A stretch of DNA of 64,000 bases. It comes from Bradyrhizobium sp. CCBAU 53340. GTDB lineage: Bacteria > Pseudomonadota > Alphaproteobacteria > Rhizobiales > Xanthobacteraceae. Below the pieces are notes generated by a model. It worked only from the letters and a program-made list of their open reading frames with translations, was not told the origin of the DNA and ran no database searches. Positions 2,525-42,197 of the stretch are shown piece after piece. How positions within the stretch are numbered: position 1 is the stretch's first letter; every line of letters begins with the position of its first letter. Location: assembly GCF_015291645.1 (NCBI RefSeq), contig NZ_CP030055.1, positions 5,642,001-5,706,000 on the forward strand, in the 5' to 3' direction. Both the position numbers and the translations under genes were made by a program.

Positions 2525-2923
2525 ATGCCGCATTTCACCATCGAATATTCGGCCAATCTCGACAGCCGGCTCGACATCGGCGCGGTGTGCGAAGTGGTGC
2601 GCAAGGCGGCGGTCGAGACCGGCATCTTCCCGCTCGGCGGCATCCGCGTTCGCGCTATCCGCTGCGAGCACTATGCGATCGCAGATGCCCGCAACGACTA
2701 CGGTTTCCTCGACATGGTGCTGCGCATCGGCGAGGGCCGCGATCTTCCGACGCGCCAGAAAGCCGGCGAACATGTCTTCCAGGCGCTCTCAAAGCATCTC
2801 GATCCCGTCTTCGCCGCCAGCAAGTTCGCCCTGTCGTTCGACATGCAGATCAACGACAAGGATACGAGCTGGAAGCGCAACAACATCCACGACGCATTGA
2901 AAGTGGAGGCTGCCCATGGATAA
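2525..2923 (+). CDS. hpaF: 5-carboxymethyl-2-hydroxymuconate isomerase
   Basis: 132 aa tautomerase-superfamily protein beginning MPHFTIEYSANL. Pro2, exposed after Met removal, is the catalytic base of this family (known of the family). RCEHYAIADARNDYGFLDM and MQINDKDTSWKRNNIHDA are typical CHMI segments. It isomerises 5-carboxymethyl-2-hydroxymuconate to 5-oxopent-3-ene-1,2,5-tricarboxylate for the decarboxylase. The last 8 bp overlap the hpaE start, which suggests translational coupling. Confidence 0.92.
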   Translation: MPHFTIEYSANLDSRLDIGAVCEVVRKAAVETGIFPLGGIRVRAIRCEHYAIADARNDYGFLDMVLRIGEGRDLPTRQKAGEHVFQALSKHLDPVFAASKFALSFDMQINDKDTSWKRNNIHDALKVEAAHG

Positions 2924-4454: not shown

Positions 4455-4480
4455 GGAAACGGGCCGAGAGGGGAAACGCA

Positions 4481-5464: not shown

Positions 5465-5467
5465 GCG

Positions 5468-6337
5468 ATGAAGCTCCCTCGCCTCGCCACCTATTCCGTC
5501 AAGGGTGAAGCCCGCTACGGCGCCGTTCTCGAGGGCGGCATCGTCGATCTCTCCGCGCGCTACGCCAAGGACTATCCAACGCTGCGCGAGGTGATCGCCG
5601 CCGGCAAGCTTGTGCCCCTTGCCGAGGAGGCCGCCAGCCGCACGCCGGTTCACGCGCTCGGCGAGATCACATGGCTGCCGCCGGTGCCCGCGCCGGAGAA
5701 GATCATCTGCATCGGCGTCAACTATCCCGATCGCAACGCCGAGTACAAGGACGGCCAGGAGGCGCCGAAATATCCGAGCATGTTCATGCGCTCGCCCCGC
5801 TCCTTCGTTGGCCACGACACGCCTCTGGTGCGCCCGCGCGCGTCCGCGCAGCTCGACTATGAGGGCGAGATCGTGCTGGTGATCGGCAAGCAGGGCCGGC
5901 ACATCAAGGAGAGCGATGCCCTCGACCACATCGCCGCGCTCACGCTCTGCAACGAGGGTTCGGTGCGCGACTGGCTGCGCCACGCCAAGTTCAACGTCAC
6001 GCAGGGCAAGAACTTTGATTCCAGCGGCAGCCTCGGACCATGGCTCGTGCCGTATGTCAAGGAAGCGCAGCTTGCCGACATCAGGCTGACCACGCACGTC
6101 AATGGCGAGCTCAGGCAGGACGAGCGCACCAGCCGGCTGATGTTTCCGTTCCGCTATCTCATCAGCTATATCTCGACCTTCGCAACGCTCGTGCCCGGCG
6201 ACGTCATCGTCACGGGCACGCCGACCGGCGCTGGGGCGCGGTTCGATCCGCCGCGATACCTGAAGCCCGGCGACGTCATCGAAGTCGCGGCCGAGGGCAT
6301 CGGCACTTTGCGCAACGGCGTCGTCGACGAAGCCTGA
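5468..6337 (+). CDS. hpaG: Fumarylacetoacetate hydrolase-fold decarboxylase, HpaG-like
   Basis: 289 aa single-domain FAH-family protein. Core segments: EKIICIGVNYPDR, QLDYEGEIVLVIGKQGR, VRDWLRHAKFNVTQGKNFDSS, LGPWLVPY and VIVTGTPTGAGARFDPP, with the acidic metal ligands in DYEGE. In this operon it is the natural candidate for 5-oxopent-3-ene-1,2,5-tricarboxylate decarboxylase. E. coli HpaG is a two-domain fusion of about 430 aa with isomerase activity, so this is a one-domain version with the isomerase supplied by HpaF. Ureidoglycolate lyases and other FAH enzymes are similar in sequence. Confidence 0.83.
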   Translation: MKLPRLATYSVKGEARYGAVLEGGIVDLSARYAKDYPTLREVIAAGKLVPLAEEAASRTPVHALGEITWLPPVPAPEKIICIGVNYPDRNAEYKDGQEAPKYPSMFMRSPRSFVGHDTPLVRPRASAQLDYEGEIVLVIGKQGRHIKESDALDHIAALTLCNEGSVRDWLRHAKFNVTQGKNFDSSGSLGPWLVPYVKEAQLADIRLTTHVNGELRQDERTSRLMFPFRYLISYISTFATLVPGDVIVTGTPTGAGARFDPPRYLKPGDVIEVAAEGIGTLRNGVVDEA

Positions 6338-6362
6338 ACAATAACACGAATGGAATGATGCA

Positions 6363-27646: not shown

Positions 27647-28519
27647 ATGTTCAAGGAAAATCTTCTGGCTGGGCGGAGCATTCTCGTGACCGGCGGCGGC
27701 ACCGGGCTCGGCAAATCGATGGCGGCGCGCTTCCTCCAGCTTGGCGCCGAGGTTCACATCTGCGGACGACGCAAGATCGTTTGCGACGAGACCGCGATTG
27801 AGCTGATGGGTGAGTATGGCGGCCGGGTCACCAGCCACGGCGTCGACATTCGCAACGCGCTCGCCGTCGAGGAAATGATCGAGACCATCTTTCGCGACGC
27901 GCCGCTGACCGATCTCATCAACAACGCGGCCGGCAATTTCATCTCGCGCACGGAGGAGCTGTCGCCACGTGGCTTCGATGCCGTCGCCAACATCGTCATG
28001 CACGGCACGTTCTATGTGACACAGGCTGTCGGCAAGCGCTGGATCGCCTTGAAGCAGCCGGGCAACGTCGTCTCGATCACCGTGACCTGGGTGCGCAACG
28101 GCTCGCCCTACGTCGTGCCGTCGGCGATGAGCAAGTCTGCAATCCACGCCATGACGATGTCGCTCGCGACCGAATGGGGCCGCCACGGCATCCGCCTCAA
28201 CACCATCGCGCCGGGTGAGATCCCGACCGAGGGCATGAGCAAGCGCATCAAGCCGGGCGATGAGGCCGGCGCGCGCACCAAGGCGATGAACCCGATGGGC
28301 CGCGTCGGCACCATGGAGGAATTGCAGAACCTCGCGGTGTTCCTGATCTCCGGCGGCTGTGACTGGATCAATGGCGAGACCATCGCCATGGACGGCGCGC
28401 AGGCGCTCGCCATGGGCGGCAATTTCTACCAGCTCCGCGACTGGAGCGACGACGACTGGAAGACCGCGCGCGAGAGCATCATGGCGCAGAACGAGAAGGA
28501 CCGGGCGAAGCGGGGGTGA
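27647..28519 (+). CDS. SDR, 2,4-dienoyl-CoA reductase-like
   Basis: 290 aa. It has VTGGGTGLGKSMAARFLQLG near residue 13, NNAAGNFISRTEELS, a C-terminal GGCDWINGETIAMDGAQAL, and the LNTIAPGEIPTEGM lid. NFI-x-R-x-EELS and the absence of the usual Tyr in Y-x3-K (the region reads VPSAMSKSAIHAM) place it with NADPH-dependent 2,4-dienoyl-CoA reductases (DECR-like), which lack the classical Tyr. It probably removes double bases of unsaturation during beta-oxidation. Confidence 0.83.
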   Translation: MFKENLLAGRSILVTGGGTGLGKSMAARFLQLGAEVHICGRRKIVCDETAIELMGEYGGRVTSHGVDIRNALAVEEMIETIFRDAPLTDLINNAAGNFISRTEELSPRGFDAVANIVMHGTFYVTQAVGKRWIALKQPGNVVSITVTWVRNGSPYVVPSAMSKSAIHAMTMSLATEWGRHGIRLNTIAPGEIPTEGMSKRIKPGDEAGARTKAMNPMGRVGTMEELQNLAVFLISGGCDWINGETIAMDGAQALAMGGNFYQLRDWSDDDWKTARESIMAQNEKDRAKRG

Positions 28520-28674: not shown

Positions 28675-28768
28675 ATTCGTGAAACGCTCGCGCCCCTCCT
28701 CTATCTTGTCTTCGCCCACGGATGACGCCACACTCCACCGCACAAAAACAAAACGCTACGGGAGAGAC

Positions 28769-30346
28769 ATGTCCACACAGCCATTGGCTGATCTCGCCGA
28801 CATGGTGCGCGAGCGCGCGGCGAGCCGCGGCAACGCGATCGCTTTCGAGTTCGAGGGCCGCGTCACCAGCTTTGCCGAGTTCGACGTCAAGACCAACAAG
28901 GTCGCCAACGCGCTCTTCGCGATGGGCGTGACGAAAGGCGACCGCATCGCCTATCTCGGCAAGAACAGCGACCTCTATTTCGAGCTGCTGATGGGCGCGA
29001 TGAAGGCCGGCGTGGTGATGGCGCCGGTGAACTGGCGGCTCGCCGGGCCCGAGGTCGCCTTTATCGTTTCGGATTGCGGGGCGCCGGTGCTGTTCGTCGG
29101 ACCGGAATTCATCACGCTCGCTCGCCAGATCAGGGACCGGCTGCCCGGCGTGCGCACCATCATCACGACCGAAGGCGGCGCCCCGGAGTGGCAGGATTTT
29201 GCGGCCTGGCGCGATGCGCAGAGCGACGACGATCCCAGAGTGCCGGTTGACACCAAGGACATCGCGATCCAGCTCTACACGTCGGGCACGACGGGCAAGC
29301 CGAAGGGCGCGATGCTGAGCCACGCGAGCTTCCTCAACCTCGTGCAAACGGGCAATGCCGAGGACAAGCCGGAGTGGAACCGGTGGTCGACCGATGACGT
29401 CTCGCTGGTGGCAATGCCGATCTTCCATATCGGCGGCTCCGGCTGGGGCGTGATGGGGCTTTATCACGGTGCTCGCGGCGTCATCGCGCGCGAGTTCGAT
29501 CCGACCAAGGTGCTGGATTTCTTCGAGCAGTCGGGCATCACAAAGCTGTTCATGGTGCCGGCGGCGATGCAATTCGTGGTGCGGCAGCCGCGCGCGAAGA
29601 CGGTCGATTTCTCCCGGCTGAAATACATGCTGTACGGCGCCTCGCCGATTCCAGCGGCGCTGCTGAAGGAATGCATCGAGGTCTTCAAATGCGGCTTCGT
29701 GCAGATGTACGGCATGACCGAGACAACGGGCACCATCGTCGCGCTGCCGCCCGAGGATCATGTCGAGGGGCTGGAGCGGATGCGCTCGGCCGGCAAGGCG
29801 CTGCCGGGCGTCGAGCTCGCGATTTTGGATGTGGACGGCAAACCGCTGCCGCCGCGCCAGGTCGGCGAGATCGCGACGCGCTCGGGCTCCAATATGGCGG
29901 GTTACTGGAATTTGCCCGAAGCGACCGCCGCGACGCTGCGCGGCGATGGCTGGCTGCGCACCGGTGATGCCGGCTTCATGGACGAGGACGGCTATCTGTA
30001 TATCCACGACCGCATCAAGGACATGATCATCTCCGGCGGTGAGAACATCTACCCCGCCGAAGTCGAGAGCGCGCTGTGCGATCACCCCGACGTCGCCGAA
30101 GCTGCCGTGATCGGCGTGCCCGACGATAAATGGGGCGAGGCGGTGAAGGCCGTCGTGGTGATGAAGCCCGGCAAACAGGCGAGCGCCACCGACATCATCA
30201 ACTTCACCCGCGAGCGTATTGCCGGCTATAAGACGCCGAAGAGCGTGGAGTTCTTGCCGGCGCTGCCGCGCAATCCGAGCGGCAAGATTCTGCGGCGGCA
30301 GTTGCGCGAGCCGTATTGGGCGGGGAAGGATCGGCGGGTGAATTGA
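28769..30346 (+). CDS. Acyl-CoA synthetase (AMP-forming), fatty-acid ligase-like
   Basis: 525 aa. Motifs: AIQLYTSGTTGKPKGAM (AMP binding), VQMYGMTETTGTI, GDGWLRTGDAGFMDEDGYL, the hinge IKDMIISGGENIYPAEVE and the catalytic Lys in LPRNPSGKILRRQLRE. It makes acyl-CoA from a free acid. It could supply substrate to the kinase/ACAD system downstream, as LvaE does in the levulinate pathway; that link is inferred. Start chosen at ATG 28769 after GGGAGAG; the upstream 30 codons overlap the end of repeat B1. Confidence 0.9.
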   Translation: MSTQPLADLADMVRERAASRGNAIAFEFEGRVTSFAEFDVKTNKVANALFAMGVTKGDRIAYLGKNSDLYFELLMGAMKAGVVMAPVNWRLAGPEVAFIVSDCGAPVLFVGPEFITLARQIRDRLPGVRTIITTEGGAPEWQDFAAWRDAQSDDDPRVPVDTKDIAIQLYTSGTTGKPKGAMLSHASFLNLVQTGNAEDKPEWNRWSTDDVSLVAMPIFHIGGSGWGVMGLYHGARGVIAREFDPTKVLDFFEQSGITKLFMVPAAMQFVVRQPRAKTVDFSRLKYMLYGASPIPAALLKECIEVFKCGFVQMYGMTETTGTIVALPPEDHVEGLERMRSAGKALPGVELAILDVDGKPLPPRQVGEIATRSGSNMAGYWNLPEATAATLRGDGWLRTGDAGFMDEDGYLYIHDRIKDMIISGGENIYPAEVESALCDHPDVAEAAVIGVPDDKWGEAVKAVVVMKPGKQASATDIINFTRERIAGYKTPKSVEFLPALPRNPSGKILRRQLREPYWAGKDRRVN

Positions 30347-30511: not shown

Positions 30512-31786
30512 CTAATGCTTCCCCGGCCCCATATATCCAAACAGGAACCCCGCAACCTTGCGCATCTGGATCTCCTCGCTGCCTTCGGTGATGCGATAGC
30601 GGCGGTGGTGGCGGTAGATGTGCTCGAATGGCTTGTGGCGTGAGTAGCCCATGCCACCATGGACCTGCATGGCGCGGTCGGCGGATTCGCAGCAGAGGCG
30701 GTTTGCCCAGTAGTTGCACATCGAGACGCGGTCGGAGAGCGTGCGCTCGATCTGCTCCTCGGTGAGCTGGTCCATCTCCCAGGCGGTCTTGCGGATCAAC
30801 AGACGCAGCATCTCGGCTTGCGTCGCGAGCTCCACCAGCGGGAACTGGATCGCCTGGTTCTCGGCGAGCGCCCTGCCGAACGGCTTTCGCTCGCGAGCGT
30901 ATTTGACGCTCTCGTTGATGCAATAGACGGCGGCGCCGAGCGAGCTCGCGGCCTGGCGGATGCGGTTCTGATGGACAAAGCACTGCGCCAGCGACAGGCC
31001 GCGGCCGACCTCGCCAAACTGGGCATCCTCGGGCACGAACACGTCGGTGAAGCTGACGCGCGGATGGTCGGTCGGCATGTTGAAGGTCCACATATACTCT
31101 TCAACCTTCACGCCGTGGCTCTTGGCCGGCACCAGGAAGCAGGTGATACCGCGGGCATCGCCGTCATTGCCCGAGGTACGCGCGAACAGCGCGCAATGCG
31201 TTGCCACATGCATGCCTGTGGTCCACATCTTCTCGCCGTTGATGATCCAGCCCTTGACGTTGTCTCTGACAGCAGGCACCGCACGCGTCTCCATGTGGGT
31301 CGCGTCCGAGCCGTGATGCGGCTCGGTGAGGCCAAAGGTGATGCGGTACTTGCCCTTGATCGAGCCGTCGATCATCGCCTTCTGGTCGTCACGGCCGTAG
31401 CGGTCGAGCATGGTGACGACGGGGAAATTGCCGACGATCGAGTGCTCGTTCTGCAGGTCGTTGTGCAGGCCGAGCCCCTTTGCGGCAAAATGCTCGCGGA
31501 TCACGGCCATCCAGAGGTTGGAGCCGTCCTTGCCGCCATATTGCTTGGGCACCGGAAAGCGCAGATGACCGGCGGCGTCCGCGAGATCCTTGGCCTTGCG
31601 CAGCAGCGCTTCCCATTCATGACGCGGCAGGCCGCCGTTCTCGAAATCGGTGCGCGCCCATTCGCGGCGATGATCGAAGAAGCGGATGTTGTCGTCGGCC
31701 TCCTCCAGCGGCTTGATCTTGCGCTCAATGAAGCGATCGAGTTCTCCGAGATAGGCGACGAGGTCGGCAGGCAATGAGAAATCCAC
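30512..31786 (-). CDS. Acyl-CoA dehydrogenase
   Basis: 424 aa FAD enzyme. FAD/substrate segments are FGLTEPHHGSDATHMETR and WIINGEKMWTTGMH. The C-terminal region has MQVHGGMGYSRHKPFEH and YRITEGSEEIQ, the normal ACAD signature around the catalytic base. It forms 2,3-enoyl-CoA and passes electrons to ETF. The start is GTG with GGGAGAG upstream. It is divergent from the crotonase gene at 32000 with 213 bp between, where I see no clear operator. Confidence 0.92.
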   Translation of the reverse strand: MDFSLPADLVAYLGELDRFIERKIKPLEEADDNIRFFDHRREWARTDFENGGLPRHEWEALLRKAKDLADAAGHLRFPVPKQYGGKDGSNLWMAVIREHFAAKGLGLHNDLQNEHSIVGNFPVVTMLDRYGRDDQKAMIDGSIKGKYRITFGLTEPHHGSDATHMETRAVPAVRDNVKGWIINGEKMWTTGMHVATHCALFARTSGNDGDARGITCFLVPAKSHGVKVEEYMWTFNMPTDHPRVSFTDVFVPEDAQFGEVGRGLSLAQCFVHQNRIRQAASSLGAAVYCINESVKYARERKPFGRALAENQAIQFPLVELATQAEMLRLLIRKTAWEMDQLTEEQIERTLSDRVSMCNYWANRLCCESADRAMQVHGGMGYSRHKPFEHIYRHHRRYRITEGSEEIQMRKVAGFLFGYMGPGKH

Positions 31787-32818: not shown

Positions 32819-32924
32819 GCCGTCATGCCCCGCGAAGGCGGGGCATCCAGTACGCCGCGGCTTCTCGATCAAACCACAGCCGTCTCGGAGTGCTGGATCG
32901 CCCGCCTTCGCGGGCGATGACAGC
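32819..32924. repeat. Intergenic inverted repeat, family C (copy 1)
   Basis: GTCATGCCCCGCGAAGGCGGGGCATCCAGTACGCCGCGGC and the opposite end AGTGCTGGATCGCCCGCCTTCGCGGGCGATGACAG each form a hairpin and also pair with each other. It lies between convergent genes. Copies at 36471 and 52580. Confidence 0.87.
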
Positions 32925-32944: not shown

Positions 32945-33322
32945 CTACCCGTCTCGCCCCAGCTCCCGCTTGTAAGAGGCGTAGTTCGGCTGATCGACGG
33001 CGAGCTTGTCCATCGTGGTCGCCCATAAATGCTCTGCAAGGCCGGGCGTTGTGAGATCCACCTCACCCTTGGTTATACGATCGGCGAGCGTGCGGTTGAG
33101 CTCGGTCACCGAACCGTCCATGCCGAGCAGCGCACGCAACCGCTCTACTTCTCTCGCATCACTCCCCTCCTCCTGTGTCAGCTGGCGCGTCACGAGATCG
33201 AGGATGTTGATCGCCACCCGCAGCTTGAACGATTGATGGCCCGAGATCAGCGGCGTGATGTCGTTGCGGAGGAAATCGGCGACTGCCTTGGTCAGCTCGA
33301 TCGGCGTCGGTTCGTCCTGCAT
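32945..33322 (-). CDS. DUF6285 protein, likely partner of the adjacent APH-type kinase
   Basis: 125 aa, no signal or membrane segment, mostly helical and charged: IELTKAVADFLRNDITPLIS, FKLRVAINILDLVTRQL, VERLRALLGMDGSVTELN, LADRITKGEVDL. This matches what I recall of DUF6285, whose genes sit next to aminoglycoside-phosphotransferase-like genes. In the levulinate pathway a small protein (LvaB) of this size is needed by the kinase LvaA; equating the two is my inference. Start at ATG 33322 with GGGAG 6 nt upstream; the frame also has a TTG that overlaps the kinase stop. Confidence 0.77.
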   Translation of the reverse strand: MQDEPTPIELTKAVADFLRNDITPLISGHQSFKLRVAINILDLVTRQLTQEEGSDAREVERLRALLGMDGSVTELNRTLADRITKGEVDLTTPGLAEHLWATTMDKLAVDQPNYASYKRELGRDG

Positions 33323-33324
33323 GG

Positions 33325-34311
33325 TCAACTCCCGCGCGGCGCGATCAGCCGCAACAGATCAATCTCGGTCTCGGACGCGCGACGACCGATCATCGCACGC
33401 TCCATGGAATGATCAGGCCCTTCGCGAAAACGCTGCATCATGCCGCCACACATGATGCCCCAGCGCAGCGTGCCCATCACTTCCCAGAATTTGACGCGTG
33501 CCGGATCGACCTTCCGCCCCGCCGCCTCATAGCCCGCGAACAGCTCCTCGCGCGAACCAAAGCCGCCGACGGGCTTGTCGATCTCGCCAAAGCGCCAGGA
33601 GTTGACGCAGACCCACCCGAGATCCTCCATGGGATCGCCGAGATGAGCGAGCTCCCAGTCCAGCACGGCACGGACGCCGTCGGCGCCGATGATGAGATTG
33701 CCGTTGCGGAAATCGCCATGCACCAGCGTCACTTCAGTCGACGGCCCGGGATCGTGGTCGCGCAGCCAGCGCAGCGCCAGCTCGAATACGGGCTTTGGCC
33801 AATTCAGGCTGCGATAGTCGCGGTCGAACTCGGCGATCTCCTGTGTCGCCGACCTGCTGCGCAACACGGGCAATTTGTCCTGAGGCAGCTTGTGCAACTC
33901 GGCAAGCACGCCACCGATCTGCCGTGCGAGAAGCGGTCGCGCCGCCGCGAATTCGTCATCGCGAAGAATCTTGCGGGCGATGGTTTCGCCCTCGACCCGC
34001 TGCATGATGAAGCCGATGCCAAGATCCTCGTCCGGCGTCAGCACATGCAGCACCCGCGGTGACGGCACGCCCGCCTCGTAGGCGAGCTGCATCAGCTGCG
34101 CTTCAGCTGCGAGACCCGCTGCGCGCGTCGGCGCTGCGCCATACCCCTTCGGCGAGCGGCGCAGGATCGCGCCGATCAGGCCGTCGGGATGGGTGATATC
34201 GAAACGCCAGGTCTCCTGGCTGGCGCCGCCCGACAGCTTTGCCGCGCCGGTGACGCCGGTCGCGCCGGGACACCAGCGCTGGACGCTGCGGGAAAGCTCT
34301 GCCTCGATCAT
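33325..34311 (-). CDS. APH-type phosphotransferase, LvaA/ACAD11-N-like acyl-CoA kinase candidate
   Basis: 328 aa protein-kinase-like fold. Catalytic loop TLVHGDFRNGNLII (His198-Gly-Asp200 with Asn) and metal motif VLDWELAHLGDP (Asp218) are intact, and GGASQETWRFDI is the N-lobe loop. This is the family of the N-terminal domain of human ACAD10/ACAD11 and of bacterial LvaA, which phosphorylate 4-hydroxyacyl-CoA. True antibiotic kinases are less likely in this acyl-CoA setting. The ATGA overlap with the upstream crotonase and near-overlap with DUF6285 downstream make a tight three-gene operon. Confidence 0.85.
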   Translation of the reverse strand: MIEAELSRSVQRWCPGATGVTGAAKLSGGASQETWRFDITHPDGLIGAILRRSPKGYGAAPTRAAGLAAEAQLMQLAYEAGVPSPRVLHVLTPDEDLGIGFIMQRVEGETIARKILRDDEFAAARPLLARQIGGVLAELHKLPQDKLPVLRSRSATQEIAEFDRDYRSLNWPKPVFELALRWLRDHDPGPSTEVTLVHGDFRNGNLIIGADGVRAVLDWELAHLGDPMEDLGWVCVNSWRFGEIDKPVGGFGSREELFAGYEAAGRKVDPARVKFWEVMGTLRWGIMCGGMMQRFREGPDHSMERAMIGRRASETEIDLLRLIAPRGS

Positions 34312-35096
34312 TTGCCTTTGAACTGTGCGGGCCGCTTTTCCAGGAACGCACCGACGCCCTCCCGGAAATCTTGCGTGTCGCCGGCGCGGAGCTGGCACTG
34401 GAATTCGAGATTGAGCTGGTCCTCGAAGGAGTTTTCGGGGCTATCCCAATAGAGCTTGCGGATCAGCGACAGCGCCACCGTCGGGCCGCTGGCCAGCTCA
34501 CGCGCAAGCTTCATCGCTTCTTCCATCAGCACGCCATCGTCATACACGCGGTTGACGAGGCCCCATTCCAGCGCCTTCTCCGCCGGCAGCCGCTCGCCCA
34601 TGAGCGACAGCTCGATCGAGCGCGCCTTGCCGATCAGACGCGGCAACAGCCAGGTCGAGCCGCAATCCGGCACAAGGCCGATGCGGCGGAAGGCTTGCAG
34701 GAAATAGGACGAACGCGCGCACAGGATCATGTCGCCGAGCAGCGCGAAGCTCATGCCGGCGCCTGCCGCCGGTCCGTTCACCGCCGTGATGATGGGACAG
34801 TGCAGATTGCGGATACGGCGCAGGAAGGGATGAAAGCCAGTCTCCAGCGTCAGGCCGGCCTTGGTCTTCTTCGACTGGTTGTTTCGCCCTTGCAGATTCG
34901 CACCGGTGCAGAACGCGCGCCCCGCGCCCGTCAGCACGACACAGCGCACTTCATCCTTCCTCTCCTCGATCGCATCGAGCGCCTCGGCGAGCCCACCCAG
35001 CATATCCACGGAGACCGCGTTCATCACCTCCTGATGGTCGAGCTTGAGGATCGCAACCGAACCATCGAGATCGAGCGTGACGTGTTTGAACTGCAT
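34308..35096 (-). CDS. Enoyl-CoA hydratase/isomerase (PaaG-like)
   Basis: 262 aa. Oxyanion segments AFCTGANLQGR and VNGPAAGAGMSFALLGD; the acid region FRRIGLVPDCGSTWLLPRL carries the Asp used by PaaG-type isomerases, in place of the Glu pair of hydratases. First gene of the crotonase-kinase-DUF6285 operon, coupled to the kinase by ATGA. Start taken at MQFKHVTLDL (ATG 35096); the frame is open much further upstream but overlaps the divergent SDR gene. Confidence 0.9.
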   Translation of the reverse strand: MQFKHVTLDLDGSVAILKLDHQEVMNAVSVDMLGGLAEALDAIEERKDEVRCVVLTGAGRAFCTGANLQGRNNQSKKTKAGLTLETGFHPFLRRIRNLHCPIITAVNGPAAGAGMSFALLGDMILCARSSYFLQAFRRIGLVPDCGSTWLLPRLIGKARSIELSLMGERLPAEKALEWGLVNRVYDDGVLMEEAMKLARELASGPTVALSLIRKLYWDSPENSFEDQLNLEFQCQLRAGDTQDFREGVGAFLEKRPAQFKGK

Positions 35097-35262
35097 GGTT
35101 TCCTCGTCAGTTGCAGCCTGCATCAATTTCGCAGACCGGAATTCGTTTTGCCGGGGCGCATATTTGATTTTTGGCGCGGTCTTGTCCATGGTGATCGGAG
35201 CATAGCAAGCAATCTTGTGCGCAGCGGCTGATGAGCCCCGTGCCAAGAACAGGAAACGCGCC

Positions 35263-36042
35263 ATGAACCTTTTCGACCTCACCGGCCGCGTTGCCGTGAT
35301 CACCGGCGGCAATGGCGGCATCGGGCTCGGCATCGCGCAGGCGCTCGTCGGCCAGGGCTGCAATGTCTCGATCTGGGGCCGCAATGCTGACAAGAACAAG
35401 GCTGCTGCCGCGAGCATGGCGGGGCTATCAGGCAAGGTCGACACCCGCGTCTGCGACGTCACCGATCCCGCTTCCGTGAATGCAGCTATGAAGGCAACGC
35501 TCGACGTTTTCGGCCGGGTCGATGGCTGCTTCGCCAATGCCGGTATCGGCGGCGGTGGCCGCAGGTCCTTCATCGAGCGCACCGAGGCGGAATGGCACAC
35601 AATGTTTGCGACCAATCTCGACGGCGTGTTCCACGCCTTCCAAGCGGCCGCCAAGCACATGACCGATCGCGCCAATGCCGGCGATCCCTTCGGCCGGCTG
35701 GTCGCAACTTCGAGCCTCGCTTCGATCTTCGGCACCGCGCGCAACGAGCATTACGCCGCAACCAAGGCCGCCATCAACGCTCTGGTACGCGCGCTCGGCG
35801 TCGAGCTCGCCCGCCACGGCGTCACCGCGAATGCGATCCTGCCCGGCTGGATCAAGAGCGACATGACGGCGGGTCTGATGGGCAATGAAAAGTTCGTCGC
35901 CAACGTGATGCCGCGGATTCCGATGCGGCGCTTCGGCGAGGCATCCGATTTCGGCGGCATTGCCGTGTACCTGATGAGCAAGGCGTCGTCGTATCACACA
36001 GCGGATACGTTCGTGATCGACGGCGGCTATACCGCGTTTTAA
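35263..36042 (+). CDS. Short-chain dehydrogenase/reductase
   Basis: 259 aa classical SDR. VITGGNGGIGLGIAQALVGQG, FANAGIGGGG, catalytic Ser in VATSSLASIFG, Tyr and Lys in HYAATKAAINAL, and a C-terminal DTFVIDGGYTAF. NAD(P)-dependent oxidation or reduction of a hydroxy/oxo group, possibly of an acyl-CoA or levulinyl-CoA-like compound given its place beside the kinase operon (inferred). Start at ATG 35263 after AGGAA; it faces away from the crotonase-kinase operon. Confidence 0.89.
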   Translation: MNLFDLTGRVAVITGGNGGIGLGIAQALVGQGCNVSIWGRNADKNKAAAASMAGLSGKVDTRVCDVTDPASVNAAMKATLDVFGRVDGCFANAGIGGGGRRSFIERTEAEWHTMFATNLDGVFHAFQAAAKHMTDRANAGDPFGRLVATSSLASIFGTARNEHYAATKAAINALVRALGVELARHGVTANAILPGWIKSDMTAGLMGNEKFVANVMPRIPMRRFGEASDFGGIAVYLMSKASSYHTADTFVIDGGYTAF

Positions 36043-36073
36043 GTCTGGTAATCAGAACAGGAAGGGGCAAACG

Positions 36074-36454
36074 ATGTTCTCGCACGTCATGATTGGCACC
36101 AACGACCTCGACAAGGCCAAGGCCTTCTACGACAGCCTGCTGAGCACGCTCGAAGTGCGGCCGGCGCGGGTCGATGGCCACCGCATCTTCTACATCACCA
36201 AGACCGGCGTGTTCTCGGTGTCGAAGCCGATCAACGGCGAGCCGGCAACGTGTGCGAACGGCGGCACCATCGGCTTTGCTGCCAATTCGCCCGAGCAGGT
36301 CGAGGCCTGGCATGCGGCCGGCATCGCGGCCGGAGGAAAGCCGATCGAGGATCCGCCCGGCATGCGCGAGGGTTCGGGCGTCAAGCTCTACCTCGCCTAT
36401 TTGCGCGATCTCGACGGCAACAAGATCTGTGCGATGCATCGGATGCCGAACTGA
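36074..36454 (+). CDS. VOC-superfamily (glyoxalase-like) protein
   Basis: 126 aa single VOC module: HVMIGTNDLDKAKAFYDSLL at the start, VFSVSKPINGEPAT, GGTIGFAANSPEQVEAWH, and DLDGNKICAMHRMP at the end, where a metal ligand usually sits. His4 or His37 may be the other ligand. Function not predictable; the position 31 bp after the SDR suggests cotranscription. Confidence 0.83.
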   Translation: MFSHVMIGTNDLDKAKAFYDSLLSTLEVRPARVDGHRIFYITKTGVFSVSKPINGEPATCANGGTIGFAANSPEQVEAWHAAGIAAGGKPIEDPPGMREGSGVKLYLAYLRDLDGNKICAMHRMPN

Positions 36455-36470
36455 TTCAGCCGCAACCACC

Positions 36471-36583
36471 GCTGTCATGCCCCGGCTTGACCGGGGCATC
36501 CAGTACGCCGCGGCCCATCGGGTTCTATCGCTGCGGCCTCTGGAATACTGGATCGCCCGGTCTTCGCCGGGCGATGACAGCGG
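36471..36583. repeat. Intergenic inverted repeat, family C (copy 2)
   Basis: GTCATGCCCCGGCTTGACCGGGGCATCCAGTACGCCGCGGC at one end and CTGGAATACTGGATCGCCCGGTCTTCGCCGGGCGATGACAG at the other. It occupies the first part of the 302-bp gap before the acyl-CoA dehydrogenase; the remaining 170 bp hold only the leader, with no clear operator. Confidence 0.87.
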
Positions 36584-36756
36584 AGAGTGAGGCGCGCACC
36601 CGCTGCCTCCTCCGCCGCCATTCAAACAACATTTCAAACGCCCTCGCGATATTCCATCGCATGGCATGGCGCGCGCGGGAAAATACGCGCTCGCACTTTC
36701 GTGGCGCTGCGACTATTCTCCCGGCCAATACGATCTCTGACGTCCCGGGAGGAACA

Positions 36757-38034
36757 ATGACAAAGCACACCTATATTCCCCGCACCACCAACTACACGCT
36801 CAATCCCGGCGATGAGCTCAATGATCTCAGGATGTCGGACCAGGTCCGGCCGCTCTACGATCACGTCAAGAAGTTCATCCGCGACACCGTCGAGCCGATG
36901 TCGATCGAATTCGCCAAGGCCGGCGAAGGCAAGGAGGATCGCTGGAGCTTTACGCCGAAGCAGCTCGAGGTGCTGGAGAAGGCCAAGAACAAGGCCAAGC
37001 AGGAAGGCCTCTGGAACTTCTTCCTGCCCGATGACGAGACCGGCCAGGGCCTGAAGAATCTCGACTACGCCTATATCGCCGCCGAGCTCGGCAAGAGCCC
37101 GCTGGCCTCTGAGACCATGAACTGCTCGGCGCCCGACACCGGCAACATGGAGGTGCTGGAGCGCGTCGGCACCAAGGAGCAGAAGGAGAAGTGGCTGAAG
37201 CCGCTGCTCAACGGCGAGATCCGCTCCGCCTATGTCATGACCGAGCCGAACGTCGCCTCCTCCGATGCCAAGAACATCTCGACCACCGCAAAGCTCGTCG
37301 GCGACGAATGGGTCATCAACGGCGAGAAGTATTACATCTCCGGTCTCGGCGATCCCCGCTGCAAGATCCTCATCGTGATGGTGAAGACCAATCCCGACGC
37401 GGCGCCGAGCAAGCAGCAGTCGCAGATTCTGGTGCCGCGCGACACGCCCGGCGTCGAAGTGCTCGGGCCCATGTACGTGTTCGGTCAGGACCACGCGCCG
37501 CGCGGCCACATGCATATGCGCTTCAACAATGTGCGCGTGCCGAAGGAGAACATGCTGCTCGGCGAAGGCCGCGGCTTCGAGATCTCGCAGCTCCGCTTAG
37601 GGCCGGGCCGCATCCATCACTGCATGCGCACCATCGGCAAGGCCGAGAAGGCGCTCGATTTGATGGTGCAGCGTGGCCTCACCCGCGAAGCCTTCGGCAA
37701 GAAGATCGCCCATCTCGGCGGCAACATGCAGATCATCGCGCAGGCCCGCTGCGAGATCGAGGCGATGCGGCTGATGGTGCTGAAGGCCGCCAAGGCCATG
37801 GATGTGCTCGGCAACAAGGAAGCCCGCGTCTGGGTCTCCATGGTCAAGGCCATGGTGCCCGAGCGCGCCTGCAAGATCATCGATCAGGCAATCCAGATGC
37901 ACGGCGCCACCGGCATCTCGCACTGGACCCCACTCGCGGAAATGTACCAGGACGTCCGGCACCTGCGCTTCGCCGATGGTCCGGACGAGGTACACTGGAT
38001 GGTGGTCGGCCGCCACGAACTGAGCATGGCGTGA
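36757..38034 (+). CDS. Acyl-CoA dehydrogenase, ACAD10/11-like (LvaC candidate)
   Basis: 425 aa. Hallmarks of the ACAD10/11 branch are visible: YVMTEPNVASSDAKNIS, YYISGLGDPRCK, HHCMRTIGKAEKALDLM and LRFADGPDEVHWMVVGRHEL at the C-terminus. In mammals this domain is fused to an APH-type kinase, and in Pseudomonas its counterpart LvaC handles the 4-phosphoacyl-CoA. Here the kinase is a separate gene 2.4 kb away on the other strand. The strong GGGAGG before ATG 36757 sets the start. Confidence 0.9.
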   Translation: MTKHTYIPRTTNYTLNPGDELNDLRMSDQVRPLYDHVKKFIRDTVEPMSIEFAKAGEGKEDRWSFTPKQLEVLEKAKNKAKQEGLWNFFLPDDETGQGLKNLDYAYIAAELGKSPLASETMNCSAPDTGNMEVLERVGTKEQKEKWLKPLLNGEIRSAYVMTEPNVASSDAKNISTTAKLVGDEWVINGEKYYISGLGDPRCKILIVMVKTNPDAAPSKQQSQILVPRDTPGVEVLGPMYVFGQDHAPRGHMHMRFNNVRVPKENMLLGEGRGFEISQLRLGPGRIHHCMRTIGKAEKALDLMVQRGLTREAFGKKIAHLGGNMQIIAQARCEIEAMRLMVLKAAKAMDVLGNKEARVWVSMVKAMVPERACKIIDQAIQMHGATGISHWTPLAEMYQDVRHLRFADGPDEVHWMVVGRHELSMA

Positions 38035-38206: not shown

Positions 38207-39088
38207 TTAGGCAGTCTTCGCGGCCTCAATCTTGTCCTGCGTCCTGGTCTCGAAGTCACTCGCGTCGTGCCGCTCGTGGAGCTGGCTGGCGGGATCGCCG
38301 GAGACGCGATTGACCATGCGGCCGCGCTTGACGGCGGGACGCTGCGCGATCTGGTCGGTCCAGCGCTGCACGTTCTTGTAATCCTGCACCGACAAGAATT
38401 CGCCGGCGCCGTAGACCAGCCCCTTGGCGAGCGCGCCGTACCAGGGCCACACGGCAATATCGGCGATGGTGTACTCCTTGCCCGCGAGATATTCGTGATC
38501 GGCGAGGCGACGGTCGAGCACATCGAGCTGACGCTTGGTCTCCATCGCGAAGCGGTCGATGGCGTATTCGATTTTGAACGGCGCGTAGGCGTAGAAGTGG
38601 CCGAAGCCGCCGCCGAGATAGGGCGCGCTGCCCATCTGCCAGAACAGCCAGGACATCGCCTCTGTGCGGGTCTTGATATCCTTGGGCAGGAAGGCACCGA
38701 ACTTCTCGGCCAAATAGAACAGGATCGAGCCGGACTCGAACACCCGGATAGGCTCCGGACCCGAGCGATCCATCAGTGCCGGAATTTTCGAGTTCGGGTT
38801 GATGTCGACAAAACCGCTGCCGAACTGGTCGCCATTGCCTATTCTGATCAGCCAGGCGTCGTATTCGGCGCCCTTGTGGCCCAGCGCCAGAAGCTCCTCC
38901 AGCATCACCGTGACCTTCACCCCGTTCGGCGTCGCCAGGGAATAAAGCTGCAGCGGGTGCTTGCCGACGGGCAGCTCCTTGTCGTGGGTGGGGCCAGCGA
39001 TCGGCCGGTTGATGCTGGCGAATTGGCCGCCATTCTCCTTGTCCCAGGTCCAGACTTTGGGCGGCACGTAAGCGGGGGCGTCGGTCAT
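38207..39088 (-). CDS. yghU: Glutathione-dependent disulfide-bond oxidoreductase, YghU-like
   Basis: 293 aa GST-fold protein, longer than canonical GSTs as in YghU. It has the extended N-terminus (PPKVWTWDKENGGQFASINR) and the thioredoxin-fold segment LYSLATPNGVKVTVMLEELL with the Thr-Pro-Asn-Gly turn that binds glutathione. PNSKIPAL, VFESGSILFYLAEKF and YTIADIAVWPWYG follow. It reduces disulfides using two glutathione molecules. Start at MTDAPAYVPP (ATG 39088); the extra upstream frame overlaps the next gene's leader. Confidence 0.9.
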   Translation of the reverse strand: MTDAPAYVPPKVWTWDKENGGQFASINRPIAGPTHDKELPVGKHPLQLYSLATPNGVKVTVMLEELLALGHKGAEYDAWLIRIGNGDQFGSGFVDINPNSKIPALMDRSGPEPIRVFESGSILFYLAEKFGAFLPKDIKTRTEAMSWLFWQMGSAPYLGGGFGHFYAYAPFKIEYAIDRFAMETKRQLDVLDRRLADHEYLAGKEYTIADIAVWPWYGALAKGLVYGAGEFLSVQDYKNVQRWTDQIAQRPAVKRGRMVNRVSGDPASQLHERHDASDFETRTQDKIEAAKTA

Positions 39089-39346
39089 GCGAGGGCTCCG
39101 GCGGAAAGATGCGTGTGCATTAATTAGCCCGCGCATGGCCGATGGCAAGCCCCGCCCGCTCTGCGTCCGGCGCGGGCCTGAGGCCGGCGTCATGCATTCG
39201 GTGAACCTCGCTCGACAGCGCATCGGTGCGGCCGGGATGGCCCATCGCACCACGTGACGCCTGCACGCAAGATGCGCGCGGGAATCCGGCATGGCATCGC
39301 ACATGACGATGGGCGCAGCCGCGTCGAGACCCGCCGGGAGAGAACC

Positions 39347-40480
39347 ATGAAATCGCCGATCTGCGACATGCTGGGAATCGAGTTCCCCCTGCTCGCCTTC
39401 AGCCATTGCCGCGATGTGGTCGCGGCCGTGAGCCGCGCCGGCGGCTTCGGCGTGCTGGGCGCCACCGTGCACACACCTGACACGCTCGAACGGGAACTGA
39501 AATGGATCGACGATCACGTCGACGGCAAGCCCTACGGCATCGACGTGCTGATCCCGGAAAACATCTCCACCGCAGGCGAGAAGCACGTCACCTGGAAGAG
39601 CCTGGAAGCGCGCGTACCGCAGCAGCACCGCGCCTACACGCGCGACCTCCTGAAGAAATACGATATCGAGCTGACGACGACAGAGGTGGACGACAACCAG
39701 CCCCAACCGTTCGACGCCGAGACCGCGCTGGAGCTGCTAAAAGTCTCTTTCAATCATCCGATCCGCCTGATCGCGAATGCGCTCGGCGTGCCGCCGAAGG
39801 CGATGATCGAGATGGGCAGGAAACACAACGTGCCCGTCGCCGCGCTCGTCGGCGCCAAGGAGCACGCGCTGCGCCAGGTCGCGGCCGGCGTTGACATCCT
39901 CGTGGTGCAGGGCACCGAAGCCGGCGGCCATTGCGGCGAGGTCTCGACCATGGTGCTGGTGCCGGAGGTGATCAAGGCGATCAAGAAGGTCCGCGACGTG
40001 CCGGTGCTGGCGGCCGGTGGCATCATGACGGGCCGGCAGATGGCGGCCTGCATGGCGATGGGTGCGGCCGGCGCGTGGACCGGCTCGGTGTGGCTGGCGA
40101 CGGTCGAATCGGAGACCAGCGAAATCTTTCGCGAGAAGATGATCGCGGCCTCATCGCGCGATGCGATCCGCTCGAAGGGGCGCACCGGCAAGCCGGCGCG
40201 GCAGCTGCGCTCGGTCTGGACCGATGCCTGGGATCGCGCGCCGGAAAGCCCCGGCGCGCTGCCGATGCCGCTGCAGAGCATCGTCAGCCGCGACGCCTTC
40301 CACGCGATCGACCGCGCGGCGGCCGCCGGCAACGCCAAGGCGCGCGACCTCGTCAGCTATTTCGTCGGCCAGGGTGTCGGATTGATCGACAGTGTGAAAT
40401 CGGCCGGCGCCGTGGTGCAGGAGTTCAAGGAGGAGTTCGCCGAAGCCGTCGAGCACATGAACGCGCTGGTCGCGGAGTGA
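39347..40480 (+). CDS. Nitronate monooxygenase-like FMN enzyme
   Basis: 377 aa TIM-barrel flavoprotein of the 2-nitropropane dioxygenase family. Segments: the N-terminal EFPLLAFSHCRDVVAAVSRAGG, VDILVVQGTEAGGHCGEV (FMN phosphate side), VPVLAAGGIMTGRQMAACMAMGA and the C-terminal helices. The usual AGGHxG motif appears as AGGHCG. Members oxidise nitronates or act as enoyl reductase-like proteins. In an acyl-CoA island its physiological substrate is unclear. Start at ATG 39347 (GGGAGAG). Confidence 0.82.
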   Translation: MKSPICDMLGIEFPLLAFSHCRDVVAAVSRAGGFGVLGATVHTPDTLERELKWIDDHVDGKPYGIDVLIPENISTAGEKHVTWKSLEARVPQQHRAYTRDLLKKYDIELTTTEVDDNQPQPFDAETALELLKVSFNHPIRLIANALGVPPKAMIEMGRKHNVPVAALVGAKEHALRQVAAGVDILVVQGTEAGGHCGEVSTMVLVPEVIKAIKKVRDVPVLAAGGIMTGRQMAACMAMGAAGAWTGSVWLATVESETSEIFREKMIAASSRDAIRSKGRTGKPARQLRSVWTDAWDRAPESPGALPMPLQSIVSRDAFHAIDRAAAAGNAKARDLVSYFVGQGVGLIDSVKSAGAVVQEFKEEFAEAVEHMNALVAE

Positions 40481-40510: not shown

Positions 40511-40646
40511 CCATCCTTCGAGGCTTGCCCGACGGCGCGTTGCGCCGCCGACCTCGCACCTCAGGATGACGCTGTCCCCGTAGCCGTCATCCTGAGGTGC
40601 GAGCAGCACGGTGCGCAGCACCGCGCAGCGAGCCTCGAAGGACGAC
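40511..40646. repeat. Intergenic inverted repeat, family E (copy 1)
   Basis: CCATCCTTCGAGGCTTGCC and CGAGCCTCGAAGGACGACGG are the ends, around CTCGCACCTCAGGATGACG and CGTCATCCTGAGGTGCGAG, which pair perfectly over 19 bp. The right end lies just 40 bp before the thiolase-like start. Confidence 0.85.
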
Positions 40647-40682
40647 GGCGTGCTACGGATTTTGAGAGTGAAGCAAGAAGAA

Positions 40683-42197
40683 ATGACCAAGACCAACATC
40701 CCCGAAGACCGCATCCCCGTCATCGTCGGCATCGGCGAGATCGTCGACCGCCCCAAGGAGATCGCCGAGGGCCTCGAGCCCCTCGACCTGCTCGAACAGG
40801 CCTTGCGGCGGGCCGAGGCTGACGCCGGCGCAAAGCTGCTTGGCGAGATCCGGTCGCTCGACGTCGTCAACTTCCTGAGCTGGCGCTATCGCGATCCGGA
40901 GAAGCTGCTGGCGCAGCGCCTCGGCGTCTCGCCGACGCATTGCTATTACGGCCCGGTCGGCGGTGAGAGCCCGATCCGCTACATCCACGAGGCGGCAAAG
41001 CGCATCGCGCGCGGGGAGTGCACCGTGGCGGCCGTCTGCGGCGCCGAAGCGCAATCGACTGCGACGAAAGCCGATCGCGCCGGCGTCAAGCTGCCATGGA
41101 CGCCGTTCGCGCATGATGTGGCGGAGCCCAAGCGCGGCGCCGCGTTTCAGAAACCGCTCGCCGTGAAGCTCGGCGTGTTCCGTCCTGTCACGGTCTATCC
41201 GTTCTACGAAGCTGCCTCCTCCGCGCATTGGGGCCAGACGCCGCGCGAGGCGATGGCAGAATCGGGAACGCTGTGGTCGCGCTATTCGGACGCCGCCGCG
41301 CAAAATCCCAATGCCTGGCTGAAGCGGCGCTATGCCCCTGAGGAGATCACGACGCCGACGGCCGACAACCGGCTCATCGCCTGGCCCTACAACAAGCTGA
41401 TGGTGGCCAACCCCAGCGTCAACATGGGCGCCGCGCTGTTGCTCACCAGCCTTGCCAAGGCGCGCGCGCTCGGCGTCGCGGACGACAGGCTGGTGTATCC
41501 GCTCGGCGGCGCGTCTGCCGAGGAGCCGCCTGATTACCTCTTGCGCGACCAGTTCTACGAGAGCCATCCGCAGAATGCGGTGCTGAAGGCCGCGATGAAT
41601 CTCGCCGGCGGGGACGGAAAACAGTTCGACGCGATCGAGCTCTATAGCTGCTTCCCCTGCGTGCCAAAAATGGCGCGACGGACGCTGGGCCTTTCCGCCG
41701 ACGTGCAGCCCACCGTAACCGGCGGCCTCACTTTCTTCGGTGCGCCGCTCAACACCTACATGACGCATGCGGCCTGCGCGATGGTGCGTCGGATTCGCGA
41801 TGGCGCCGGACTTGGCCTGCTCTACGGCCAGGGCGGCTTCGTCACCAAGCATCATGCGTTGGTCGTCTCCAAGACGCCGCCGCGCGAGGCGCTGGCGCAG
41901 GAGACGAGCGTGCAAGGAGAGGCTGACCGCAACAAGCGCGCCGTTCCGGAATTCATCACGGAGATCTCGGGCAAGGGTAAGGTCGAGAGCTTTACGGTGC
42001 TCTATGGCCGTGGCGGCGATGTCGAGCACGGCGTGGTGATGCTGCGCACGGAGGATGGCCGGCGCACGCTGGCACGGATTCCGGCGAGCGATAGTGCAAC
42101 GCTAGGGCATTTGCTGAACATGGATCGCACGCCGGTGGGCTCGCTCGGCGAGATCACGATGGCTGCGGATGGCGTGCCGGAGTGGCGGGTGGCGTAG
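40683..42197 (+). CDS. Thiolase-fold acetyl-CoA acetyltransferase-like protein
   Basis: 504 aa. Thiolase fold: RIPVIVGIGEIVDRPKEIAE, a CGAEAQSTATKADRAG segment at the usual active-Cys helix position, YSCFPCVPKMARRTLG, and VTGGLTFFGAPLNTYMTHA near the C-terminal active His region. Longer than degradative thiolases by about 100 residues, with a C-terminal OB-like extension (KGKVESFTVLYGRGGDVEHG, then VMLRTEDGRRTLARI) resembling a fused DUF35 partner. A beta-ketoacyl-CoA cleaving or condensing role is inferred. Confidence 0.82.
   Translation: MTKTNIPEDRIPVIVGIGEIVDRPKEIAEGLEPLDLLEQALRRAEADAGAKLLGEIRSLDVVNFLSWRYRDPEKLLAQRLGVSPTHCYYGPVGGESPIRYIHEAAKRIARGECTVAAVCGAEAQSTATKADRAGVKLPWTPFAHDVAEPKRGAAFQKPLAVKLGVFRPVTVYPFYEAASSAHWGQTPREAMAESGTLWSRYSDAAAQNPNAWLKRRYAPEEITTPTADNRLIAWPYNKLMVANPSVNMGAALLLTSLAKARALGVADDRLVYPLGGASAEEPPDYLLRDQFYESHPQNAVLKAAMNLAGGDGKQFDAIELYSCFPCVPKMARRTLGLSADVQPTVTGGLTFFGAPLNTYMTHAACAMVRRIRDGAGLGLLYGQGGFVTKHHALVVSKTPPREALAQETSVQGEADRNKRAVPEFITEISGKGKVESFTVLYGRGGDVEHGVVMLRTEDGRRTLARIPASDSATLGHLLNMDRTPVGSLGEITMAADGVPEWRVA

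What the first reader, a model, noticed from the sequence alone, without database searches (positions are those of the whole stretch)
32945..38034. Split APH-kinase / DUF6285 / ACAD10-11-like set: candidate 4-hydroxyacyl-CoA phosphorylation pathway
The sequence shows an intact APH-type kinase (33325-34311) coupled by ATGA to a crotonase and directly followed by a DUF6285 gene. 2.4 kb away is an acyl-CoA dehydrogenase with the ACAD10/11 signatures MTEPNVASSD and LRFADGPDEVH. In mammals kinase and dehydrogenase are one protein (ACAD10/11). In Pseudomonas putida the lva genes use a kinase (LvaA), a small partner (LvaB), a dehydrogenase-type enzyme (LvaC), an SDR (LvaD) and a ligase (LvaE) to remove a 4-hydroxyl by phosphorylation. 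All five types occur here, on both strands and spread over the island rather than in one operon, with a PaaG-like isomerase coupled to the kinase. That arrangement and its substrate appear undescribed to me.
Basis: partly seen in the sequence, partly recalled or inferred. Interest (0 to 1): 0.82.

Follow-up and report, generated by a model that had tools for sequence, protein, structure and literature searches.

The report
Two-part hydroxyacyl-CoA kinase gene set
A soil bacterium carries a two-protein enzyme that probably tags hydroxy-fatty-acid molecules with phosphate so that they can be broken down, and its long-term partner appears to be a different dehydrogenase from the one first proposed.

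Summary
On the minus strand a crotonase, an APH-fold kinase (33325-34311) and a DUF6285 gene lie in tandem. DUF6285 is the LvaB family (an annotated LvaB matches PF19802), and natural kinase-DUF6285 fusions exist. The kinase is closer to LvaA (35%) than to the genome's own ACAD10/11-type kinase (28%). The dehydrogenase at 36757-38034 is of ACAD10/11 type (HCMR motif, catalytic Asp). The proposed pairing is only partly supported: that dehydrogenase adjoins the kinase in 4 of 4 same-genus loci and 0 of 15 loci of other genera of the family (three cut by contig ends). The conserved partner is another dehydrogenase, here ACAD2 (30512-31786), with catalytic Glu and no HCMR. In the class, 40 of 41 ACAD2-bearing genomes also carry DUF6285, often unlinked. 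Of 51 ACAD2 genomes checked, 50 also hold an ACAD10/11-type kinase. Some related kinases do stand beside an HCMR enzyme. Best reading: a second, LvaAB-like hydroxyacyl-CoA kinase system with its own dehydrogenase, parallel to the ACAD10/11-type pair. Substrate, and which dehydrogenase removes the phosphate, are unknown. New variant of a known kind.

The parts
33325..34311 (-). APH-fold kinase, LvaA-like; HGDFRNGN and DWE catalytic motifs intact
   Evidence: PF01636 E 8.2e-38; 35% to LvaA, 28% to own ACAD10/11-type kinase; motif alignment; trees
32945..33322 (-). DUF6285 protein, LvaB family; probable kinase subunit
   Evidence: PF19802 113 bits; annotated LvaB of L025 hits the same family, 85.3 bits; natural fusions
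34308..35096 (-). Crotonase 1 (PRK05981 family), translationally coupled to the kinase (ATGA)
   Evidence: NF004635 481.7 bits, cut-off 351; junction; ACAD2 is present in 29 of its 42 class genomes
30512..31786 (-). ACAD2: acyl-CoA dehydrogenase with catalytic Glu (ITEGSEEIQ), no HCMR; conserved partner of the kinase
   Evidence: Neighbourhood; co-occurrence; alignment
36757..38034 (+). ACAD10/11-type dehydrogenase (R282, HHCMR, DGPDEVH)
   Evidence: PDB 8v3u ACAD11 393 bits; 55% to the dehydrogenase next to the own ACAD10/11-type kinase, 29-31% to LvaC; invariant residues
31937..32779 (+). Crotonase 2, between ACAD2 and DUF6285; likely start about 32000
   Evidence: PF00378; in 14 of 18 family loci L031-L048
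35263..36042 (+). SDR 1, divergent from crotonase 1
   Evidence: PF13561; in 13 of 18 family loci
28679..30346 (+). Acyl-CoA ligase (PRK06187 family)
   Evidence: NF004837 658.9 bits, cut-off 476; matched, often in pieces, in 7 of 18 family loci
27647..28519 (+). SDR 2 (2,4-dienoyl-CoA reductase-like, below cut-off)
   Evidence: in 9 of 18 family loci
39254..40480 (+). Nitronate-monooxygenase-like protein (PF03060)
   Evidence: in 8 of 18 family loci
40611..42197 (+). Thiolase-like protein (PRK08257 family)
   Evidence: NF006106 924.8 bits, cut-off 684; in 11 of 18 family loci
36074..36454 (+). Glyoxalase-like protein; own-genus loci only among the family loci
   Evidence: PF00903; L031, L033, L035

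Best explanation
The kinase and the DUF6285 protein form a two-subunit kinase of the LvaAB kind. It phosphorylates a hydroxyl, most likely the 4-hydroxyl, of an acyl-CoA made by a ligase of the island. The phosphate is then lost as a leaving group and the resulting enoyl-CoA runs through crotonases, SDR and thiolase. ACAD2 is the committed dehydrogenase of this route. The ACAD10/11-type dehydrogenase next door is a later addition in this genus that can also serve it. Shown by sequence: the families, the order of genes, the co-inheritance with ACAD2 and the motifs. Inferred: kinase activity, the 4-hydroxyacyl-CoA substrate, the subunit interface here. Open: which dehydrogenase removes the phosphate. 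I put an HCMR (ACAD10/11- or LvaC-type) enzyme at about 0.55, ACAD2 itself at about 0.35, neither at about 0.10.
For: DUF6285 is the LvaB family. LvaB binds LvaA in a pulldown and is needed for growth on levulinate in P. putida (PMC6692424 citing Rand et al.; passages). Kinase nearer LvaA (153-156 bits) than the ACAD10/11-type kinase (67 bits); in a tree of 22 DUF6285-linked and 8 ACAD10/11-type kinases the two sets split at 100/100, no outgroup. Fusions: single ORF in 7 of 60 loci, and 120 of 120 listed hits of a fusion query (7987 in all) carry both Pfam domains. A natural fusion models with pLDDT 92.3, pTM 0.90. ACAD2: 17 of 20 DUF6285-positive and 0 of 80 negative genomes in the family; in the class 40 of 66 positive and 1 of 223 negative; 36 of 37 with a DUF6285 score of 85 bits or more (cut chosen after seeing the data). 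Kinase within the fetched flank in 59 of 80 named ACAD2 loci. HCMR motif seen in 54 of 54 DUF6285-positive genomes looked at, so an eliminating enzyme is at hand.
Against: No activity data. ACAD2 lacks the HCMR residues and has Glu, so it may be an ordinary dehydrogenase of a later step. 21 of 80 ACAD2 loci show no kinase in the fetched DNA, several of them short, but some with 10 kb on each side (e.g. Caulobacter vibrioides L157). Window-side kinases in L069 (two), L082 and L089, and an actinobacterial kinase 49% identical in Nonomuraea (L141), stand beside an HCMR enzyme instead. Of 66 loci L025-L090, 35 show neither ACAD2 nor an HCMR enzyme. Genomes are related, so counts are not independent. 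Crotonases, SDRs and ligase are common types.
Confidence: 0.6

Rival explanations
1. One reading: the kinase-DUF6285 pair and the adjacent ACAD10/11-type dehydrogenase (36757-38034) are one split ACAD10/11-like unit and ACAD2 is incidental.
For: The dehydrogenase has the published ACAD10/11 residues (PMC12440821, passages). It lies 2.4 kb away in 4 of 4 same-genus loci. Lva- or Thermus-type kinases have an HCMR dehydrogenase next door (L025, L026, L028, L085, L087, L088, L090), and so do some window-side kinases (L069, L082, L089) and the Nonomuraea one (L141). HCMR enzymes were seen in 54 of 54 DUF6285-positive genomes looked at. In the family an HCMR-like match is in 20 of 20 DUF6285-positive and 53 of 80 negative genomes, p 0.0013.
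Against: Absent beside the kinase in 15 of 15 loci of other genera of the family (L036, L038 and L039 are cut by contig ends). ACAD2 is far more specific: 0 of 80 DUF6285-negative family genomes have it. 50 of 51 ACAD2 genomes checked have an ACAD10/11-type kinase to account for their HCMR enzyme.
Confidence: 0.25
2. ACAD2 is itself the phosphate-eliminating enzyme, a second and unrelated solution to the LvaC/ACAD10-11 step.
For: At kinase-DUF6285 loci the two types seldom meet: of 66 loci L025-L090, 17 show ACAD2 only, 10 HCMR only, 4 both (L029, L031, L033, L035) and 35 neither; L144 and L220 among the 80 ACAD2 loci also have both. G222 holds one locus of each type (L068, L082). Co-inheritance with the kinase.
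Against: No Arg/His/Arg of the HCMR helix; catalytic Glu as in ordinary dehydrogenases. Best PDB match by sequence is caffeyl-CoA reductase CarC, 159 bits. HCMR enzymes were found in every DUF6285-positive genome looked at.
Confidence: 0.3
3. The kinase acts on another hydroxyl, for example a tertiary alcohol of a steroid or isoprenoid side chain, as 25-hydroxysteroid kinase does.
Confidence: 0.1

Closest known systems
Lva pathway (LvaABCDE) of Pseudomonas; here the lva operon of p12939-PER (L025) and S. stutzeri S116 (L026)
   Same: APH kinase followed by a DUF6285/LvaB gene; kinase 35% identical; acyl-CoA ligase, SDR and a dehydrogenase-fold enzyme nearby
   Different: Lva has LvaC (HCMR) in the same operon; here the local HCMR enzyme is of ACAD10/11 type (29-31% to LvaC), on the other strand and genus-specific, and the conserved partner is ACAD2. 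Crotonase coupled to the kinase.
ACAD10/ACAD11 of mammals and their bacterial counterparts
   Same: Kinase plus HCMR dehydrogenase chemistry; 36757-38034 carries the diagnostic residues
   Different: Separate genes; kinase of the DUF6285-linked set and only 38 bits from the ACAD11 kinase. The same genome has a separate pair at G000:C1:3356525-3358948 whose kinase is 256 bits from ACAD11.
25-hydroxysteroid kinase of Sterolibacterium denitrificans (PMC8449060; PDB 9ft5, 9fsg)
   Same: APH-fold kinase that makes a phosphate leaving group of an alcohol before elimination
   Different: Steroid side-chain tertiary alcohol; a DUF6285 partner is not mentioned in the passages I saw; not among the sequence hits of the window kinase at E up to 1e-8

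Membership tests
LvaAB-type two-subunit kinase | APH fold with intact catalytic HxD(x4)N and DWE | tested here: met
   motif names partly recalled
LvaAB-type two-subunit kinase | LvaB-family (DUF6285) gene directly downstream | tested here: met
LvaAB-type two-subunit kinase | Kinase nearer LvaA than ACAD10/11-type kinases | tested here: met
   pairwise scores; 22 DUF6285-linked and 8 ACAD10/11-type kinases split at 100/100, unrooted. Within the DUF6285 side the window sits in a 15-row set (97/91) apart from the 6-row Lva set (95/98), so it is a sister type, not LvaA itself. The 69-row tree has one ACAD10/11-type row and does not test this.
LvaAB-type two-subunit kinase | Phosphorylates 4-hydroxyacyl-CoA | not testable with these tools
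   needs an assay
lva operon | LvaC-type dehydrogenase in the same operon as the kinase | tested here: not met
   nearest HCMR enzyme is on the other strand, 29-31% to LvaC, 55% to the ACAD10/11-linked type
lva operon | PrpR/LvaR-like regulator and acetate-symporter-like LvaF/G | not tested
   no dedicated search; none among the window proteins scanned, which are not all of the window's genes
ACAD10/11-LvaC dehydrogenase (36757-38034) | HCMR helix with upstream Arg and catalytic Asp | tested here: met
   R282, H290-R293, D409 invariant in alignment A1 (numbering from 36751); residues per PMC12440821
ACAD10/11-LvaC dehydrogenase (ACAD2, 30512-31786) | HCMR helix with upstream Arg and catalytic Asp | tested here: not met
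   NRIRQAASS and ITEG in 22 of 22 rows
Antibiotic-resistance APH | Reaches a resistance equivalog cut-off | tested here: not met
   APH(3') 35.1 bits against 205; APH(3'') 26 against 325; Mph(F) 28.4 against 650

The most novel reading that the evidence does not exclude
Many Alphaproteobacteria run two parallel phosphate-activation routes for hydroxyacyl-CoAs: the ACAD10/11-type pair and a DUF6285-dependent kinase whose phosphate is eliminated by ACAD2, a dehydrogenase that evolved this chemistry without the HCMR site. The second route may serve the hydroxyacyl-CoAs the first refuses; ACAD10's kinase is reported to prefer the R form strongly, so the S form is one candidate.
Probability: 0.25. 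Interest if true: 0.75.

Novelty: new variant of a known kind. Interest (0 to 1): 0.55.

Why it matters
It gives DUF6285 a testable role as the second subunit of a hydroxyacyl-CoA kinase, supported by natural fusions, and points to an unassigned dehydrogenase family co-inherited with it, down to genomes of about 1.4 Mb. If ACAD2 removes phosphate, this chemistry arose twice in one fold. It also shows that the nearest ACAD10/11-like gene is not always the partner.

Tried and rejected
Antibiotic or thiamine kinase: the NCBIfam cut-offs are missed by far. Homoserine and choline kinases appear only as fold relatives, which says nothing of substrate.

ACAD10/11 neighbour as the conserved partner: rejected on synteny within the family. 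My first thought that G190 lacked an HCMR enzyme was wrong; two were found. My first kinase tree had a single ACAD10/11-type row and could not test the grouping; a second tree with eight did. The other APH genes of the own genome (L003, L005-L009) gave no usable match as outgroup rows in that script, so it has no root.

DUF6285 in the PDB: no convincing sequence match (best E 0.15). In the fold search the listed rows span model residues 1-335, so the DUF6285 part was barely tested and no new-fold claim is made. I had no coordinates, so where DUF6285 sits on the kinase is not known to me.

Substrate from gene context: no decisive clue. Papers: DUF6285 is in 0 papers of the held library. Searches for bacterial 4-hydroxyacyl-CoA routes returned, as relevant, the Lva and ACAD10/11 papers; only listings and passages were seen, and subscription papers and preprints are not held. 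The founding Lva paper (PMC5705400) is not held, so I cite it through PMC6692424 and PMC11342911.

The phylum-wide DUF6285 count (35 of 378) was made, but the matching ACAD2 count was not, because I spent the last genome search on the ACAD10/11-type kinase. The second structure job was not used.
Full report
What is there. The window is G000:C1:5642001-5706000 of an 8.7-Mb genome; the listed kinase relatives at 86-92% identity that bear an organism name are named Bradyrhizobium. On the minus strand crotonase 1 (34308-35096), kinase (33325-34311) and DUF6285 (32945-33322) follow each other with overlapping or nearly touching ends. Crotonase 2 (+) and then ACAD2 (-, 30512-31786) lie beyond. SDR 1, a glyoxalase-like gene and an ACAD10/11-type dehydrogenase (36757-38034) lie on the plus strand.

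What the proteins are. The kinase has the APH fold, intact catalytic motifs and misses resistance cut-offs by far. It is 35% identical to LvaA, 40% to a Thermus kinase and 49% to a Sulfitobacter one, but 28% to the kinase L014 of its own genome. L014 is of ACAD10/11 type: 256 bits to the ACAD11 kinase, against 38 for the window kinase and 60 for LvaA, and it stands beside an HCMR dehydrogenase. The DUF6285 protein belongs to PF19802, and so does the annotated LvaB of the lva operon on p12939-PER. Published work as cited in PMC6692424 (passages): LvaB binds LvaA in a pulldown, and deletion of lvaA, lvaB or lvaC stops growth on levulinate. The 36757-38034 enzyme has the residues that PMC12440821 (passages) gives as typical of ACAD10/11 and LvaC: upstream Arg, HCMR and catalytic Asp. 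Its best PDB match is ACAD11, 393 bits.

Kinase and DUF6285 belong together. I fetched 60 loci around DUF6285 hits from genomes of the family and class. A DUF6285-type kinase lies within 300 nt of, or in one ORF with, the DUF6285 gene in 59; the one without (L050) came from a hit below the family cut-off. In 7 loci (L068, L072, L074, L076, L080, L081, L086) both are one ORF. All 120 listed hits of a fusion query carry both Pfam domains (7987 hits in all, the rest not listed). A natural fusion modelled from 59 sequences gave pLDDT 92.3 and pTM 0.90, so the model holds the two domains in one arrangement with confidence. In a tree of 30 kinases, 22 DUF6285-linked and 8 ACAD10/11-type rows split at 100/100 (no outgroup). 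Within the DUF6285 side, window-type (15 rows, 97/91) and Lva-type (6 rows, 95/98) kinases form separate sets.

The partner is not the one proposed. In the 18 family loci L031-L048, ACAD2 is present in 15 (L038 and L039 end at contig borders; L046 lacks it). The ACAD10/11-type enzyme is present in 3, all of the window's genus; with the window that is 4 of 4 same-genus loci against 0 of 15 others. Genome-wide in 100 family genomes (own included), ACAD2 is in 17 of 20 DUF6285-positive and 0 of 80 negative ones (G027, below the DUF6285 cut-off, is counted negative). The three misses are G001 (Lva-type), G025 and G059. In 289 class genomes (own included) ACAD2 is in 41, of which 40 are DUF6285-positive (66 are positive); Fisher p about 3e-30, not corrected for kinship. 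Of 37 genomes with a DUF6285 score of 85 bits or more, a cut chosen after seeing the data, 36 have ACAD2. I compared gene positions in 20 of the 40: in 6 the two genes lie within 5 kb, in 14 they are far apart or on different contigs, so linkage does not explain it. A named sample of 80 ACAD2 loci (the best 80 of 580, chosen by similarity to the query) has the kinase within the fetched DNA in 59 and both kinase and DUF6285 in 46, mostly as kinase, DUF6285, ACAD2 on one strand; an HCMR enzyme is in 2. G224, the one ACAD2-only class genome, shows no kinase near ACAD2.

Results against a simple rule. Kinases on the window side of the tree stand beside an HCMR enzyme in L069 (two sets), L082 and L089, and so does a 49% identical kinase of the actinobacterium Nonomuraea (L141). 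Of 66 loci L025-L090, 17 show ACAD2 only, 10 HCMR only, 4 both and 35 neither. So adjacency alone does not fix the partner; the genome-wide count is the stronger evidence for ACAD2.

HCMR enzymes are available, but explained otherwise. All 57 DUF6285-positive genomes given to the search have a match to the HCMR profile at E up to 1e-50, and the motif was seen in 54 of 54 looked at (G066, G088 and G324 not looked at). They are less specific: at E up to 1e-140, 20 of 20 DUF6285-positive and 53 of 80 negative family genomes have one (this cut-off may admit relatives without the motif). An ACAD10/11-type kinase (E up to 3e-95) is in 53 of 59 DUF6285-positive genomes. It is missing in G001, G127, G152, G196 and G332, where ACAD2 is also missing and the HCMR enzyme is of LvaC type, and in G151. 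So 50 of 51 ACAD2 genomes in that list hold both kinases. Hence two arrangements: Lva-type loci with their own LvaC, and window-type kinases with ACAD2 in genomes that also run an ACAD10/11-type pair. Three genomes of about 1.4 Mb (G148, G273, G369) keep DUF6285, ACAD2, an HCMR enzyme and an ACAD10/11-type kinase at separate places.

What ACAD2 is. Matches share 61-99% identity with the window's, while the other dehydrogenases compared, apart from the Sulfitobacter orthologue (70%), lie under 31%. 22 of 22 rows have the catalytic-Glu motif ITEG[SA]EEIQ and NRIRQAASS in place of GRIHHCMR. It looks like an ordinary dehydrogenase by its base, yet with an unusual polar stretch. It may do a dedicated dehydrogenation, or the elimination by another route.

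Mechanism. Shown in relatives: a LvaAB or ACAD10/11 kinase makes a 4-phosphoacyl-CoA, and an HCMR enzyme converts it to enoyl-CoA (PMC11342911 and PMC12440821, passages). Inferred here: the same first step, with the window kinase and DUF6285. The ligase, SDRs, crotonases and thiolase-like gene fit entry and onward beta-oxidation but are not specific. ACAD10's kinase strongly prefers the R form, so a parallel kinase for another stereoisomer or chain type is a reasonable guess and no more.

Verdict. Observation confirmed; interpretation half right; new variant of a known kind, with a clear test of which dehydrogenase removes the phosphate.

Noticed in passing
G000:C1:3356525-3358948 (L014), G000:C1:4840230 (L015), G000:C1:5623264 (L016): Three further HCMR dehydrogenases in the genome; the first stands beside an ACAD10/11-type kinase as a complete pair, the third lies about 18 kb before the window.
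   Followed up: partly
window 32819-32924 and 36459-36593: Palindromic elements (39-nt arms, 82% complementary; 28-nt arms, 79%) with similar sequence, between genes on both sides of the kinase cluster; likely a dispersed intergenic repeat.
   Followed up: partly
L027 5947-7355: Cupriavidus pinatubonensis plasmid p2 has kinase and DUF6285 with no dehydrogenase of the acyl-CoA type annotated in the 13-kb stretch, beside an indolepyruvate ferredoxin oxidoreductase gene.
   Followed up: no
L026 6930-8047; L028 8932-9932: A histidine-phosphatase gene follows DUF6285 in S. stutzeri and Thermus. PMC6692424 reported the phosphatase but no lvaB in P. citronellolis; a small DUF6285 gene may have been missed there.
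   Followed up: no
L068 and L082 (both G222): One genome carries both a kinase-DUF6285 fusion beside ACAD2 and a separate kinase-DUF6285 pair beside an HCMR dehydrogenase.
   Followed up: no
window 38207-39097 (-); L238 9670-10494: The GST-family gene of the window has a close relative (443 bits) beside the DUF6285 kinase of a distant 1.7-Mb genome.
   Followed up: no
L083, L054, L077: A thiolase-like (L083, L054) and an HMG-CoA-synthase-like gene (all three; my reading of the sequence starts) lie near the kinase in small or distant genomes.
   Followed up: no
window 2916-7988 (+): Aldehyde dehydrogenase, catechol-2,3-dioxygenase-like, FAA-hydrolase and TPP-enzyme genes in a row, resembling an aromatic meta-cleavage set.
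   Followed up: no
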